Positions 28,758-36,883 of a stretch of DNA of 36,986 nt are shown here, in pieces. Each line of letters opens with the position of its first letter. Within the stretch, counting starts at the first letter, position 1. Source of the stretch: Bacteroidetes bacterium RIFCSPLOWO2_12_FULL_35_15 (GTDB lineage: Bacteria; Bacteroidota; Bacteroidia; 2-12-FULL-35-15); assembly GCA_001769385.1 (NCBI GenBank), contig MEPB01000104.1:1-36986 (forward strand). Reading direction: 5' to 3'. The notes under the pieces are model-generated. The model ran no database searches and was not told the origin of the DNA. It saw nothing but the letters and a program-made list of their open reading frames with translations. The translations under genes were made by a program, and so were the position numbers.

Positions 28758-28900
28758 TTTTTTATTTTAATCAGAAATAAAAACGTAATAGAATGTTAGA
28801 GTTTGTATAAATTTAATTTAAAATAATTTATATCATACCTAAAGGGGGAAAGTTCTTTTTTTGTCTTTACTACCACTGATAGCTCCTAACAAAGCAAAAT

Positions 28901-28975
28901 ATAGTCCTAGCGGGACGTGATTTTGGTAGAAAATTATATCAACATTTAAGATTTAGTCCCGTATGGGACGACATA
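28901..28975. repeat. Palindromic dispersed repeat (two GTCC...GGAC hairpins)
   Basis: GTCC/GGAC (28904-28907 / 28913-28916, loop TAGCG) and a perfect GTCCC/GGGAC (28956-28960 / 28965-28969, loop GTAT) are separated by an AT-rich TGGTAGAAAATTATATC segment. This paired-hairpin layout resembles REP-like intergenic elements of Bacteroidota. It lies in the 273-base gap after ettA, where I see no gene. Confidence 0.5.
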
Positions 28976-29030
28976 CAATAAGTTTTGATTAAATTTAAAC
29001 AGGCTCTTACTTTTATAAACACATAATTCA

Positions 29031-29846
29031 ATGAAAATGAAAAAACTAATTCTTGGAATTATAATTGGCGGAATTGTTGGAGCTGTTTTAATTTTGTTGA
29101 TCATCGTGTTATTTAACAGGCATAGATCTGATGATAGAGGGGGATTACGATTAGTAAAAATTGATTCAACTTCAACAGCCGAGATTAAAAACCAACAAAT
29201 ATTGGTATATGGGGATTATTTGGATCTGGATAGCACAGATTATTTATTGATTCCGCTAGGAATGAAAACCATTGATGGTGGTGAAGGAAAATCTTTACGG
29301 TCAAAATCCCAGGATGAATATTCTGAAAGTTACACAGGAAGTTCCAGAAGTTATAAATATAATTTTTACTCCCTGGATTTCGGTAATTGTAACAACATTA
29401 TTTTCTATAACAAAAAGAATGATGAAACACATTTAATGTTGCAAAATCCGGCTATTATATCTCAATTTTATTTTCCGTATTACAATAAAGAATATGTTGG
29501 AGAAAAATATTATTTCATTTTAGTTGGAATTAGAGGAGATGATACCAATGCTGATGGGTATATCAACAGTGAAGATGCCGAGAAAGTGTATATCTCAGAT
29601 TTGTCGGGCAAAAACTTGTATCAGATAACTCCGGATAATACTCAGTTGGTTGACTGGTTCATTGATGTAAAAACAAATAATATTTTGATGAAGGTGCGTT
29701 TTGATACCAATAAAGATCAGAAATTTAATTATTATGATGAAATAGAAATATTGAAAACATCTATCAAATCTCCTGTTCAGGGAAAGGAAATTATCAGTAA
29801 AGAAATTAAAATCAATATCAAAAAAATTCTGGATAAGATTAAATAA
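29031..29846 (+). CDS. Membrane-anchored protein with two EF-hand-like loops
   Basis: This 271-aa protein has an N-terminal anchor (about residues 4-28) and an extracytoplasmic domain. Two 12-residue loops fit or nearly fit the EF-hand/dockerin calcium pattern: DTNADGYINSED (171-182; canonical, with Gly at position 6) and DTNKDQKFNYYD (225-236; Gln instead of Gly). Between them lies SDLSGKNLYQITPDNTQLVDWFIDVK, which resembles a WD/TolB-like blade. I do not recognise a named family. ATGs at 29031 and 29037 are both possible. It lies 222 bases upstream of the propeller-SpoIIE gene, but no promoter evidence links them. Confidence 0.72.
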   Translation: MKMKKLILGIIIGGIVGAVLILLIIVLFNRHRSDDRGGLRLVKIDSTSTAEIKNQQILVYGDYLDLDSTDYLLIPLGMKTIDGGEGKSLRSKSQDEYSESYTGSSRSYKYNFYSLDFGNCNNIIFYNKKNDETHLMLQNPAIISQFYFPYYNKEYVGEKYYFILVGIRGDDTNADGYINSEDAEKVYISDLSGKNLYQITPDNTQLVDWFIDVKTNNILMKVRFDTNKDQKFNYYDEIEILKTSIKSPVQGKEIISKEIKINIKKILDKIK

Positions 29847-33392: not shown

Positions 33393-33878
33393 TCATTCAA
33401 AATAAATGTGAAACAGTTTAAAAGAAGCTTCAATCTCCTGAAATGAATGTGTAGCCTCATCGCTATTTTTTGATTTGCTAAATTTATCCACCATATCAAT
33501 ATAAGGTAATAGCCATTTGTGCAACTCATCATGTGCTTTTCCTTCCATGGTGCAATTGGAAGTCAATAGCTCAATATTTTTCTGCAAACTTGCTCCGAGT
33601 TGCATGAAATCCGTTAACTCTGTATGTTGAGTTTCACCAAAGTGTTTCACATCCGACTCCATATTTTTGATGTATTCCATCATCTCCGGAACAACTTTCC
33701 ATTTAGCACCATTGTTCAGTTCTATTGAATCACTTGAAGAATGGCTGTGTTCATTTACCGTGGATGAATCCTGTAATTGAACTTTTGCATCCTCCTCATT
33801 TTCTTTTTTAACGGAATCTTTGCAGCCGTAAACAATACTTGTAAAGGCTATAATTGTTGCTATTACTTGTTTTTTCAT
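33393..33878 (-). CDS. Small hypothetical lipoprotein
   Basis: This 161-aa protein starts with a lipoprotein signal (MKKQVIATIIAFTSIVYGC, lipobox VYGC, Cys19), followed by an acidic Ser/Glu/Asp-rich linker and a helical domain (about 60-161). The domain contains MMEYIKNMESDVKHFGE and CTMEGKAHDELHKWLLPYI; the Cys plus His-Asp-x-x-His pattern could bind a metal, but this is speculative. I recall similar short Bacteroidota lipoproteins only as hypothetical proteins. It is monocistronic and convergent with the propeller-SpoIIE gene (six-base gap). Confidence 0.75.
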   Translation of the reverse strand: MKKQVIATIIAFTSIVYGCKDSVKKENEEDAKVQLQDSSTVNEHSHSSSDSIELNNGAKWKVVPEMMEYIKNMESDVKHFGETQHTELTDFMQLGASLQKNIELLTSNCTMEGKAHDELHKWLLPYIDMVDKFSKSKNSDEATHSFQEIEASFKLFHIYFE

Positions 33879-33999: not shown

Positions 34000-34041
34000 T
34001 TAATCCAACGAATTAATAGTTACCCAATATTTATAAGCAAT
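34000..34041. repeat. 42-bp direct repeat, distal copy (orphan gene 3' end)
   Basis: This copy matches 34775-34816 at 38 of 42 positions, and all four differences are T/C. On the minus strand it encodes IAYKYWVTINSLD plus stop, the C-terminal end of the 48-aa protein at 34775-34921, but the frame closes upstream and the rest of the gene is missing. It is either an attachment-site half or a gene remnant. Confidence 0.75.
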
Positions 34042-34124
34042 AAATCTAATACAGGTGTTGTTTCATCTGCATTTATTGAATGATGAATTGTTTGTTTGTG
34101 AATAACACTGACGAAGGCTGAAAA

Positions 34125-34439
34125 TTAATAACCGAATGGTTCCCTACTTGTATGCTTTATTCTAATAATACGGATTTCTTTTGTTGCTGCTTTTATTTGG
34201 TAAGTTATTCTATAACTATAAATAACGAATGCTCTAAATTCCTTATTCGGATTATCTTTTAGTTTATCCATTTCGAAAACAAAAGCGTTCTTTTTTACAT
34301 CGTCCAACCGCGACAATATTCCTTCTTTTACTATTTTGGGAGCTTGAAGACTTTGTTTTGATAAGAAACTTAATATGTCTTTAAAGTGATCGAGAGCAAT
34401 TCTATCCCAAATGATGGTATAGGATTTTTGTTTTACCAT
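34125..34439 (-). CDS. Type II toxin, RelE/ParE family
   Basis: This 104-aa basic protein has the RelE/ParE layout: YTIIWDRIALDHFKDILSFL at the N-terminus, a central helix-turn (KIVKEGILSRLDDVKKN), then EFRAFVIYSYRITYQIKAAT and IRIIRIKHTSREPFGY. RelE members cut mRNA at the ribosome; ParE members poison gyrase; sequence alone does not settle which. It starts 7 bases inside the antitoxin gene, the normal antitoxin-first arrangement with coupled translation. The pair lies between 42-bp direct repeats. Confidence 0.88.
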   Translation of the reverse strand: MVKQKSYTIIWDRIALDHFKDILSFLSKQSLQAPKIVKEGILSRLDDVKKNAFVFEMDKLKDNPNKEFRAFVIYSYRITYQIKAATKEIRIIRIKHTSREPFGY

Positions 34440-34663
34440 TTAGATAATTCATTAAGGGCATCTTCGTGTTTAACAAAATTTCCTTTTTCAATTCGGTCAA
34501 CAGCTTCTGTTATTTCTTTATTGTATTGTTTCCGTGTAATTCGCTTTGCATCTTTATCAACATTTAAAAAACTTTTAACCATTTCTAAAAGTAAAGTTTG
34601 CTGTTTATTCGATAATAATGGCAAATAACCGTCAAGTTGTTTTTTTATTGCTGTTGTAGTCAT
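34433..34663 (-). CDS. Antitoxin partner of the RelE/ParE toxin
   Basis: This 76-aa protein precedes and overlaps the toxin by 7 bases. It has an N-terminal helical part (KKQLDGYLPLLSNKQQTLLLE) and a charged C-terminal part (RKQYNKEITEAVDRIEKGNF, then HEDALNELSKW), which would wrap around the toxin. I assign it by position, size and the C-terminal pattern common in Bacteroidota antitoxins; no clear ribbon-helix-helix or helix-turn-helix is obvious. A palindrome overlapping its promoter (34672-34686) suggests autoregulation by the complex. Confidence 0.78.
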   Translation of the reverse strand: MTTTAIKKQLDGYLPLLSNKQQTLLLEMVKSFLNVDKDAKRITRKQYNKEITEAVDRIEKGNFVKHEDALNELSKW

Positions 34664-34671
34664 TTCTTTCT

Positions 34672-34711
34672 ATTTGAAAATCAAATTTACAAAAAATGGG
34701 TTAAACTCCAA
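34672..34711 (-). promoter_or_regulatory. Promoter and palindromic operator of the toxin-antitoxin operon
   Basis: On the minus strand, TTG (34711-34709), a 19-base spacer and TAAATTTG (34689-34682) form a good phylum-type promoter. A perfect palindrome, ATTTGA-AAA-TCAAAT (34672-34686), overlaps the -7 element and lies 9 bases before the antitoxin ATG, where a repressor would block transcription. Confidence 0.55.
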
Positions 34712-34774
34712 AATCAAATAAAGTGATATTTCTTTACAACAGATGAAATTTGAGAATGTTGAGAAGTAGTAAAA

Positions 34775-34816
34775 TTAATCCAACGAACCAACAGTCACCC
34801 AATATTTATAAGCAAT
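34775..34816. repeat. 42-bp direct repeat, proximal copy (3' end of the 48-aa gene)
   Basis: The second copy of the 42-bp repeat; it forms the last 13 codons and stop of the intact 48-aa gene (IAYKYWVTVGSLD). Similarity to the distal copy stops abruptly at both edges. Confidence 0.75.
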
Positions 34817-34921
34817 CAGGGCTTTTTCCCATTTTTTGAGATTTTTTAGGTCTCGGGAATAATATTTTGGTAAAATCGCCTTATTAAATTTAGCTAAGCT
34901 TTTAAAAATTATCTTTTTCAT
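34775..34921 (-). CDS. Conserved-looking 48-aa basic protein
   Basis: ATG at 34921 to TAA at 34775 encodes 48 residues: MKKIIFKSLAKFNKAILPKY, then a Lys-rich middle (RDLKNLKKWEKAL) and a C-terminus IAYKYWVTVGSLD. I recall short Bacteroidota proteins with this pattern (N-terminal LAKxNKxxLP, C-terminal YxVTxxxLD), sometimes labelled SsrA-binding protein, a label I would not trust. It is strongly basic; function is unknown. A -7-like TATATTTG (complement of 34926-34933) ends only four bases before the ATG, so the transcript may be leaderless. Its last 42 bases are one of the two direct repeats around the toxin-antitoxin operon. Confidence 0.6.
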   Translation of the reverse strand: MKKIIFKSLAKFNKAILPKYYSRDLKNLKKWEKALIAYKYWVTVGSLD

Positions 34922-35002
34922 ACGGCAAATATAGGAATAGGAAGCAATTTTTAAAAAATTAGTGTTTAGAATTCAGGCCATGATAAAAAGATTATTTCTT
35001 AT

Positions 35003-35075
35003 AGAGATTCTTCATTTCATTCAGAATGACATTCCTTGGTTTTGTTATATTGAGCGCAGCGAAATATCTTTTTGG
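35003..35075. repeat. Degenerate inverted dispersed repeat
   Basis: Two diverged, inverted arms, AGAGATTCTTCATTTCATTC (from 35003) and TATTGAGCGCAGCGAAATAT (from 35048), resemble the dispersed GAGATTC/GAGCGNAGCGAA-type intergenic repeats of Bacteroidota and could fold into a long imperfect hairpin. It occupies part of the gap between the 48-aa gene and rpmE. Confidence 0.45.
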
Positions 35076-35137
35076 AGGCAGATGCTAATTATTTTGAATA
35101 AAAACTGGCCAGTTTTTTAGTTTTTAGAATTTTTTTA

Positions 35138-35173: not shown

Positions 35174-35434
35174 ATGAAACCAGGAATACACCCAGAAAAT
35201 TACCGTTTAGTGGTATTTAAAGATTTGAGTAATGATTATGCTTTTATTACAAAATCATGCGTAGAAACAAAGGAAACCATCAAATGGGAAGATGGAAATG
35301 AATATCCAATTGTAAAATTGGAGATCTCTCATATGAGTCATCCTTTTTATACCGGTAAAGTTAAATTGGTAGATACAGCAGGCCGTGTGGATAAATTCCG
35401 TACTCGTTACGCTAAAAAAGAAACAAAAGAGTAA
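35174..35434 (+). CDS. rpmE2: 50S ribosomal protein L31, type B
   Basis: This 86-aa protein starts [20 protein letters not shown] and contains [35 protein letters not shown] and a C-terminal [10 protein letters not shown]. This is the type B (zinc-independent) L31: the four zinc-binding cysteines of type A are missing, with only one Cys present. It sits at the central protuberance bridging the two ribosomal subunits. The gene is monocistronic with a strong terminator and a probable -7 element just upstream. Confidence 0.96.
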
Positions 35435-35671: not shown

Positions 35672-36883
35672 ATGAATATACACGAATATCAAGGAAAAAC
35701 CGTATTAAAGGGGTTTGGCGTAGCAATACAAGAAGGCATTGTAGCTGATACACCTGAAAAAGCTGTTGAAGCAGCAAAAGAATTACAAAAACAAACAGGT
35801 ACCGGCTGGTGGGTTATAAAAGCTCAGATTCATGCAGGTGGGCGTGGTAAAGGAAAAATAAAAGGAACAGAACAACGCGGTGTCGCTCTTGCAAAATCAT
35901 TGGAGGATGTGAAAACTATTTCTGCAAATATCTTGGGAAATGTTTTAGTAACAGCTCAAACAGGAGAAAAGGGTCGTAAAGTAAATAAGGTATTAATTGC
36001 TCAGGATGTATATTATCCGGGAGAAACACCAACAAAAGAATTTTATATGAGTGTTTTGCTCGACCGTGCAAAAGGTCGCAATACCATTATCTACTCAACT
36101 GAAGGTGGAATGGATATTGAAACAGTAGCACACAATACACCTCATCTGATCTTTAAAGAAGAAATTGATCCGAAAGTTGGATTACGTGATTTTCAATGTC
36201 GCAAAGTTGCTTTTAACCTTGGTTTGAGTGGCGAAGCATTTAAACAAATGACAAAATTTGTTGCCTCCTTATACAAAGCATATGAAGCCACAGATTCTTC
36301 TATGTTTGAGATCAATCCGGTTTTAAAAACTTCCGATAATAAGATCATTGCTGTGGATTCAAAAGTATCATTGGATGGAAACGGTTTATTCCGTCATCCT
36401 GATCTACTTGCTTTACGTGATATTGGAGAAGAGGATCCAACAGAAGTGGAAGCAGGAGAATATGATTTGAATTATGTGAAATTAGATGGTAATGTTGGCT
36501 GTATGGTGAATGGCGCAGGTTTGGCAATGGCTACCATGGATATCATTAAACTTTCAGGTGGTGATCCTGCAAACTTCCTTGATGTTGGAGGTACTGCAAA
36601 TGCTGCTCGTGTAGAACAAGCATTCCGTATCATCTTAAAAGATCCAAACGTAAAAGCGATCCTTGTAAATATTTTTGGTGGTATTGTTCGTTGCGACCGT
36701 GTTGCACAAGGAATTGTTGATGCCTATAAAAACATGGGTTCAATTAATGTGCCTATTATTATTCGATTACAAGGAACCAATGCTGTTGAAGCGAAAAAAA
36801 TTGTTGATGAATCAGGCTTGAAAGTTTATTCAGCAATAACATTGCAAGAAGCTGCTGACCTGGTAACGAAAGTATTGAGTTAA
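35672..36883 (+). CDS. sucC: Succinate-CoA ligase, beta subunit
   Basis: This 403-aa protein has an N-terminal ATP-grasp domain (MNIHEYQGKTVLKGFGV; WWVIKAQIHAGGRGKGKIKG; FEINPVLKT; AVDSKVSLDGN) and a C-terminal CoA-ligase domain (MVNGAGLAMATMDIIKL, GGDPANFLDVGGTA, LVNIFGGIVRCDRVAQGI, IIRLQGTNA). It forms the nucleotide-binding half of the TCA-cycle enzyme that converts succinyl-CoA to succinate with ATP or GTP formation. The alpha subunit gene sucD is not next to it: a terminator follows at once, so the two subunits are encoded separately here. Length is slightly above the usual ~390 aa. Confidence 0.96.
   Translation: MNIHEYQGKTVLKGFGVAIQEGIVADTPEKAVEAAKELQKQTGTGWWVIKAQIHAGGRGKGKIKGTEQRGVALAKSLEDVKTISANILGNVLVTAQTGEKGRKVNKVLIAQDVYYPGETPTKEFYMSVLLDRAKGRNTIIYSTEGGMDIETVAHNTPHLIFKEEIDPKVGLRDFQCRKVAFNLGLSGEAFKQMTKFVASLYKAYEATDSSMFEINPVLKTSDNKIIAVDSKVSLDGNGLFRHPDLLALRDIGEEDPTEVEAGEYDLNYVKLDGNVGCMVNGAGLAMATMDIIKLSGGDPANFLDVGGTANAARVEQAFRIILKDPNVKAILVNIFGGIVRCDRVAQGIVDAYKNMGSINVPIIIRLQGTNAVEAKKIVDESGLKVYSAITLQEAADLVTKVLS

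What the first reader, a model, noticed from the sequence alone, without database searches (positions are those of the whole stretch)
34000..34816. Toxin-antitoxin operon sits between two copies of the 3' end of a 48-codon gene
The 42-bp direct repeats at 34000-34041 and 34775-34816 are 38/42 identical. The proximal copy ends an intact 48-aa gene; the distal copy is an orphan 3' end. Between them lies only a RelE/ParE toxin-antitoxin pair. Genomic islands that integrate into gene 3' ends leave exactly this geometry, but at 817 bases with no recombinase this would be a minimal, non-autonomous addiction cassette. A 3' end of a tiny protein gene, rather than a tRNA, would be an unusual target.
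Basis: partly seen in the sequence, partly recalled or inferred. Interest (0 to 1): 0.7.

Follow-up and report, generated by a model that had tools for sequence, protein, structure and literature searches.

The report
Toxin-antitoxin insertions duplicating gene ends
In a little-known group of bacteria, small toxin-antitoxin gene pairs repeatedly sit right behind a host gene whose tail end has been duplicated on their far side, which suggests that these selfish-looking pairs travel on their own and slip in behind genes without breaking them.

Summary
In detail: 34000-34041 and 34775-34816 match at 38 of 42 bases, similarity stops sharply on both sides, and a ParE/RelE-type pair lies between. 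The insertion idea is partly supported. The 48-aa gene's end is not a shared integration site: 27 other genomes of the genus hold the gene and a degenerate pattern finds one copy in each; no recombinase lies between the copies. But the arrangement recurs. Of 104 ParE-family loci tested (24 of 36 genomes), 31 are flanked by direct repeats at most 1,100 bp apart (1 of 172 size-matched ORFs). In 11 the repeat is the 3' end of an ORF facing the TA (0 of 172; 7 of 1,000 random cores). Five of these are clean, each with a different gene: the 48-aa gene, SDF symporter, M3 peptidase, cinA, FtsX/MacB permease. For cinA the window's own genome has the apparent empty site, and the orphan side carries the native downstream DNA. 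I read these as TA-only insertions with long target duplication, a kind reported for restriction-modification systems. The likeliest mechanism, recombination anchored in the gene with an illegitimate far end, is inferred. A vestige of the mksE tail behind the intact window copy fits a donor resembling the nearest relative.

The parts
34775..34921 (-). host gene, 48-aa conserved protein of unknown function (called sm48 here)
   Evidence: ORF; 28 of 36 genus genomes including the window's; L31 lies in the fetched flank in 18 of 28 loci
34775..34816 (-). intact-gene copy of the 42-nt repeat, ends at the TAA
34732..34772 (+). vestige of the 3' end of mksE (convergent neighbour of the 48-aa gene in G023), 36 of 41 aligned bases plus a 5-nt gap
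   Evidence: score 42, 0 of 500 shuffles reach it; MksE by Pfam; context. Against the own genome's mksE end alone the score is not significant (45 of 500 shuffles)
34122..34698 (-). TA block that aligns with G001:C12:102-679 (81%), i.e. the TA operon plus about 35 bp upstream
34433..34663 (-). antitoxin-position gene, 76 aa
   Evidence: 88% identical homologue beside the toxin homologue in G001; no Pfam/NCBIfam/PADLOC family
34125..34439 (-). ParE/RelE-superfamily toxin, 104 aa
   Evidence: PF05016 36.2 bits
34000..34041 (-). orphan 3' end of the 48-aa gene
   Evidence: encodes IAYKYWVTINSLD, nearer the genus consensus than the intact copy
33393..33878 (-). 161-aa gene next on the orphan side; candidate native downstream gene
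   Evidence: 5 of 36 genomes match, the window's included
35174..35434 (+). ribosomal protein L31 type B, conserved neighbour of the host gene
35672..36883 (+). ATP-grasp/CoA-ligase domain protein (named sucC by recall), conserved neighbour

Best explanation
The TA operon was inserted as a small unit directly behind the stop codon of the 48-aa gene, in an event that duplicated the gene's last 42 nt: the gene kept a complete 3' end and the displaced original end became the orphan on the far side. The likeliest route (inferred) is horizontal transfer of a fragment [gene 3' end + TA] from a relative: homologous recombination inside the host gene on one side, illegitimate joining a little upstream of the recipient's own stop codon on the other. 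The gene becomes a donor/recipient hybrid, the TA lands behind it, and the recipient's old 3' end stays downstream. Addiction by the TA (inferred) then favours keeping the insert although direct repeats could delete it. Shown: the geometry, its recurrence around related TAs with different genes, mostly TA-sized inserts, one apparent empty site at a sister locus. Inferred: direction of transfer, recombination mechanism, addiction.
For: Recurrence: direct repeats at most 1,100 bp apart flank 31 of 104 PF05016 loci, against 14 of 500 and 57 of 1,000 random cores and 1 of 172 size-matched ORFs (Fisher p 6e-14). Gene 3' end facing the TA: 11 of 104, against 7 of 1,000 and 0 of 172 (p 1.5e-5). Stop codon exactly at the repeat edge: 6 of 11 (chance 1.6e-6), among them 3 of the 5 clean cases. 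Insert size: median spacing 757, middle half 648-830 among the 31. Clean host genes besides the window's: SDF symporter 101 nt, M3 peptidase 240 nt, CinA about 100 nt, FtsX/MacB permease 39 nt. Divergence between copies in those four: codon positions 11/4/33, 36 of 48 changes synonymous, as for alleles from two genomes. Apparent empty site: G000:C10 cinA runs into DNA that matches what follows the orphan in G023:C137 (downstream part alone score 55, 0 of 1,000 shuffles). Window: orphan resembles the genus consensus, and the mksE tail behind the intact copy matches G023's context.
Against: No empty site for the window's own locus. The window's four differences are 3 nonsynonymous and 1 synonymous, so it does not itself show the coding-like pattern, and more than half of the pooled differences (26 of 48) come from one gene, the M3 peptidase. 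The gap after the toxin domain is small (median 64 nt); random fragment ends should carry more cargo more often, which hints at a defined unit (though the 1,100-bp limit favours small inserts: in 8 of 35 loci the best repeat pair lies further apart). Of the 11 gene-end cases four are T9SS sorting-domain ends, a dispersed sequence, and two rest on ORFs of 63 and 50 aa; 3 of the 6 exact stop edges are T9SS cases. Inverted repeats are enriched too: 6 of 104 against 0 of 500. The 31 cases come from 15 genomes, 8 from G019, and were counted as independent. At the cinA empty site a 28-nt promoter-like stretch matches the TA side instead (2 of 1,000 shuffles). The other four joined queries gave no match well across the join outside their own genome, but only 8 candidates per genome were scored. 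CinA and one T9SS pair align 5 and 8 nt past the stop.
Confidence: 0.6

Rival explanations
1. A discrete TA-only mobile cassette is inserted by an unidentified recombinase acting in trans that prefers gene 3' ends and terminators; the long duplication is its target-site signature.
For: Most inserts are TA-sized and the ends lie close to the TA operon; both 3' ends and terminator-like hairpins are duplicated, and some terminator-like repeats recur at several loci; some TAs lie in arrays with repeated spacers (G022:C57).
Against: The gene-end repeats of the five clean cases are unrelated gene sequences; repeats vary from 34 to 251 nt; the TA faces the same way as the host gene in 9 of 11 and the other way in 2; divergence between copies looks allelic rather than post-insertional. 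No recombinase lies between the window copies.
Confidence: 0.25
2. Classical integrative island or phage remnant using the 48-aa gene's 3' end as attB, reduced by deletion to a TA.
For: Geometry of intact gene, insert, orphan 3' end.
Against: Single copy of the 3' end in all 27 other genomes with the gene at up to 1 mismatch to the pattern; no integrase between the copies; two exact patterns absent from viral contigs; related TAs sit behind other genes.
Confidence: 0.05
3. A rearrangement scar: the window joins two synteny blocks, and the 42-nt orphan is a templated filler copied from the nearby gene when the TA-bearing end was joined to the 161-aa-gene side.
For: In G035 the homologues of window 26.4-29.8 kb and the sm48-L31-sucC block lie on different contigs; an mksE tail remains behind the gene although intact mksE is elsewhere in the genome.
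Against: Does not predict that 31 of 104 related TA loci carry such repeats, nor stop codons at repeat edges.
Confidence: 0.1
4. Local gene duplication and decay, with the TA inserted between by chance.
For: The orphan is more like the intact copy (59 bits) than like any relative (best 54.5 bits).
Against: No trace of the rest of the gene upstream of the orphan (9/40 identity and no better than shuffles), no two-copy relative, TA enrichment.
Confidence: 0.03

Closest known systems
Insertion with long target duplication of restriction-modification systems in Helicobacter pylori (Nobusato et al. 2000; seen here only as cited in passages of PMC3874152 and PMC1643837)
   Same: Addiction-type gene unit inserted unlinked to a known mobile element, with long and variable target duplications of the order of 100 bp (passage in PMC3874152; passage in PMC1643837)
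   Different: Cargo here is a ParE/RelE TA operon, the host is a Bacteroidota lineage, and repeats are in part gene 3' ends that stop at or near the stop codon; I have not seen the original paper, so cannot say whether gene ends were noted there
Homology-facilitated illegitimate recombination, as proposed for T6SS effector-immunity modules and Rhs orphan 3' regions (PMC5361080 passages; PMC3240628 abstract)
   Same: One homologous anchor plus one illegitimate join; displaced 3' ends left downstream
   Different: There the effector or its 3' region is replaced by a different one; here the new 3' end encodes almost the same tail and the novelty is the TA behind it
pdif/XerCD modules of Acinetobacter plasmids (listing and abstract openings) and integron TA cassettes (passage in PMC2654758)
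   Same: Small units flanked by short sites; complete TA operons occur as integron cassettes
   Different: Those are flanked by one defined recombination site; here each clean locus has its own repeat derived from its host gene
Tyrosine-recombinase islands at gene 3' ends (recalled, general knowledge)
   Same: Gene end restored, displaced end downstream
   Different: No recombinase between the copies and no shared site

Membership tests
Insertion with long target duplication | Insert bounded by long direct repeats of target sequence | tested here: met
   42 nt in the window; 31 of 104 related TA loci have direct repeats at most 1,100 bp apart
Insertion with long target duplication | Empty site with one copy in a relative | tested here: inconclusive
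   Apparent for the sister cinA case (G023 versus G000); for the window's own locus relatives have one copy but other downstream DNA
Insertion with long target duplication | Insert is an addiction-type unit with no recombinase | tested here: met
   Only the TA ORFs and short non-coding stretches lie between the copies; addiction itself not testable here
ParE/RelE type II toxin-antitoxin | Toxin matches the family above its cut-off and is paired with a small upstream gene | tested here: met
   PF05016 36.2 bits, cut-off 23; overlaps the 76-aa ORF by 7 nt. Against: TIGR02385 RelE_StbE is below its cut-off (18 against 27.9) and the 76-aa ORF has no family hit
ParE/RelE type II toxin-antitoxin | Toxicity neutralised by the partner | not testable with these tools
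   needs expression assays
Site-specific integrative element at a gene 3' end | Same attachment site occupied in other genomes | tested here: not met
   0 of 27 other genomes with the gene have a second copy at up to 1 mismatch to the pattern
Site-specific integrative element at a gene 3' end | Recombinase in or beside the element | tested here: not met
   None between the copies; 7 ORFs around the site scanned with Pfam show none; the rest of the window only read by eye
Homology-facilitated illegitimate recombination product | Copies differ like alleles of two genomes (mostly synonymous) | tested here: inconclusive
   Pooled over four sister cases 33 of 48 differences at third positions, 26 of the 48 from one gene; not seen in the window (1 synonymous of 4)
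Integron or pdif cassette | Same recombination site in all cassettes | tested here: not met
   Repeats of the clean cases differ from locus to locus; attC or dif models not run
Diversity-generating retroelement | Template and variable repeats beside a reverse transcriptase | tested here: not met
   Orphan has A where the gene has G at 4 of 4 differences, but the 6 RVT_1 places in the genome are all on other contigs

The most novel reading that the evidence does not exclude
ParE/RelE TA operons in this lineage are self-contained mobile units of about 0.6-0.9 kb that insert behind host genes by a dedicated, still unknown process that copies the host gene's 3' end up to its stop codon, so that the host gene is never broken; selfish TA spread would then not need plasmids, phages or transposons.
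Probability: 0.25. Interest if true: 0.85.

Novelty: new variant of a known kind. Interest (0 to 1): 0.62.

Why it matters
How chromosomal TA systems spread without plasmids, phages or transposons is an old question (recalled). A genus in which 31 of 104 ParE-family loci carry flanking direct repeats, with repeats that can record gene identity, donor divergence and join point, makes that question directly testable, and links TA spread to the long-target-duplication insertions reported for restriction-modification systems, another addiction-type unit. In my library searches (open-licence PMC papers only) no listed title or passage that I read reported TA operons flanked by duplicated gene 3' ends; I read passages of four of these papers and not the others.

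Tried and rejected
Site-specific hotspot: rejected (two searches found no viral contig). Defence-island hotspot behind the 48-aa gene: G023's neighbour looked like Wadjet to me at first, but it is MksE by Pfam, with matches in 30 of 36 genomes and no PADLOC hit, and the downstream ORFs of other relatives read like ordinary genes (by eye). Diversity-generating retroelement: rejected. TA on plasmids: no tblastn match at E 1e-5 in the plasmid collection. Solved structures: only a chance-level match. Source of the DNA on either side of the orphan: nothing beyond the repeat itself and scattered short hits of 18 to 60 nt (up to 21 candidates scored per genome). A family-wide scan added nothing because the family holds only this genus. 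Rows dropped: of 105 PF05016 matches summed, G029:C28:11-151 was left out because it has almost no flank; 104 were tested, some with flanks cut by contig ends.

Full report
What is there. The 42-nt direct repeat is real: 34775-34816 is the 3' end of an intact 48-codon gene on the minus strand and 34000-34041 is an orphan copy, 38 of 42 identical. Identity falls to 9 of 40 before the block and 8 of 40 after it, and the block ends at the TAA. Between the copies lies a ParE/RelE-type toxin (PF05016, 36.2 bits) with a 76-aa partner. The assembly holds only these two copies at up to 3 mismatches.

The host gene. The 48-aa protein matches no Pfam or NCBIfam family above cut-off but occurs in 28 of 36 genomes of the genus, the window's included, and in Marivirga and other records. 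L31 lies in the fetched flank in 18 of 28 loci. A degenerate 3'-end pattern (up to 1 mismatch) gives exactly one place in each of the 27 other genomes and two in the window's. Downstream DNA differs widely among relatives. So this gene end is not a shared attachment site.

Vestige. In the nearest relative by sucC (G023, 97% aa), the gene is followed by convergent mksE. The window keeps about 41 bp of that gene's tail right behind the intact copy (36 of 41 aligned bases plus a 5-nt gap; score 42, maximum of 500 shuffles 38), although intact mksE is on another contig. The match to the own genome's mksE end alone is not significant (45 of 500 shuffles). The intact copy therefore sits in a G023-like context. 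The orphan encodes the more consensus-like tail (WVTINSLD against WVTVGSLD).

Recurrence. Scanning related toxin loci gave the surprise: 5 of 14, the window included, were flanked by strong direct repeats. In G011 the repeat is the last 101 nt of an SDF symporter gene; in G001 it is the end of an M3 peptidase gene. I then tested 104 of the 105 PF05016 matches in the genus: 35 have a direct repeat across the toxin within 1.5-kb flanks and 8 an inverted one. With spacing at most 1,100 bp the numbers are 31 and 6. Controls at that limit: direct 14 and inverted 0 of 500 random cores, direct 57 of 1,000, direct 1 of 172 size-matched ORFs. In 11 of 104 the repeat is the 3' end of an ORF facing the TA, against 7 of 1,000 and 0 of 172. 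In 6 of the 11 the stop codon is exactly the repeat edge.

Quality of those 11. Five are clean: window, SDF symporter, M3 peptidase, CinA, FtsX/MacB permease; the stop is exactly at the edge in the first three. Four are T9SS sorting-domain ends, which are dispersed in these genomes, so two different genes could match by homology. Two rest on ORFs of 63 and 50 aa. The other 20 of the 31 repeats include terminator-like hairpins, intergenic blocks, one that reads like a gene's 5' end, and loci cut by contig ends. The 31 cases come from 15 genomes, 8 of them from G019, so they are not all independent; the controls come from other loci of the genus, not from the TA loci. Inverted repeats are also in excess (6 of 104 against 0 of 500, p 2e-5).

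Empty site. Joined flanks of five sister insertions were searched in the genus (only the best 8 candidates per genome were scored). For cinA in G023 the window's own genome gave a match running across the join: in G000:C10 cinA continues into sequence that matches what follows the orphan in G023. The downstream part alone scores 55, with 0 of 1,000 shuffles reaching it; its core motif occurs only 5 times in 869 kb of fetched loci, so it is not a common repeat. Further on, a 28-nt promoter-like stretch of the G000 site matches the TA side instead (score 36, 2 of 1,000 shuffles), which I cannot place. In G023 the orphan carries gaps of 6 and 1 nt relative to the gene, as expected of a displaced, decaying end. 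The other four queries gave no match reaching well across the join outside their own genome.

Mechanism. Inserts are mostly TA-sized (median spacing 757, middle half 648-830 among the 31; in 8 of 35 loci the best pair lies further apart). In the four clean sister cases the copies differ mostly at third codon positions (11, 4, 33) and 36 of 48 changes are synonymous, as expected if both copies evolved as coding DNA in different genomes; 26 of the 48 come from the M3 peptidase. I therefore favour transfer of [gene end + TA] from a relative with one homologous and one illegitimate end. The same scheme would explain repeated terminators when the join falls between stop codon and terminator (inference). 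The window's own four differences (3 nonsynonymous) do not show this pattern. A defined TA cassette moved by an unknown enzyme stays open because the inserts carry so little besides the TA.

Comparison. [quoted passage not shown]; the original paper not seen). Orphan 3' ends by homology-facilitated illegitimate recombination are proposed for T6SS modules (passages in PMC5361080). Membership in the first is supported except that the window's own empty site is missing.

Noticed in passing
L304 1580-3170 (G022:C57), L043: Array of small TA-like pairs separated by a repeated spacer of about 180 nt with hairpins, terminator and promoter-like sequence (by eye); looks like a cassette array.
   Followed up: partly
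window 34991-35104 and 28796-29054: Dispersed repeats with several further copies in the window's own genome.
   Followed up: no
G032:C8:49136-49399 beside 48631-48774 (L273): A ParE-family match lies within 400 bp of the 48-aa gene, on its upstream side, in another genome.
   Followed up: no
L077 1-1919 (G001:C12): Closest relative of the window's TA (toxin 86%) lies near an ORF that reads to me like a reverse transcriptase (not searched); no flanking repeat found, but the TA is about 100 bp from the contig end.
   Followed up: no
window 34013-34021 versus 34788-34796: All four differences between the copies fall within 9 bp and are A in the orphan, G in the gene (coding strand).
   Followed up: partly
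window 34775-34921: Conserved 48-aa protein of unknown function; LPKY, RDL and WE are invariant among 15 homologues.
   Followed up: partly
L229 1128-1227 (G027:C82): Repeat around a TA that reads like the 5' end of a small gene rather than a 3' end.
   Followed up: no
window 33393-33878: 161-aa lipoprotein-like gene found in only 5 of 36 genomes of the genus.
   Followed up: no
L323 (G000:C10, cinA site): The site matches the orphan side of G023 for about 62 nt and then the TA side for 28 nt; unexplained mosaic.
   Followed up: partly
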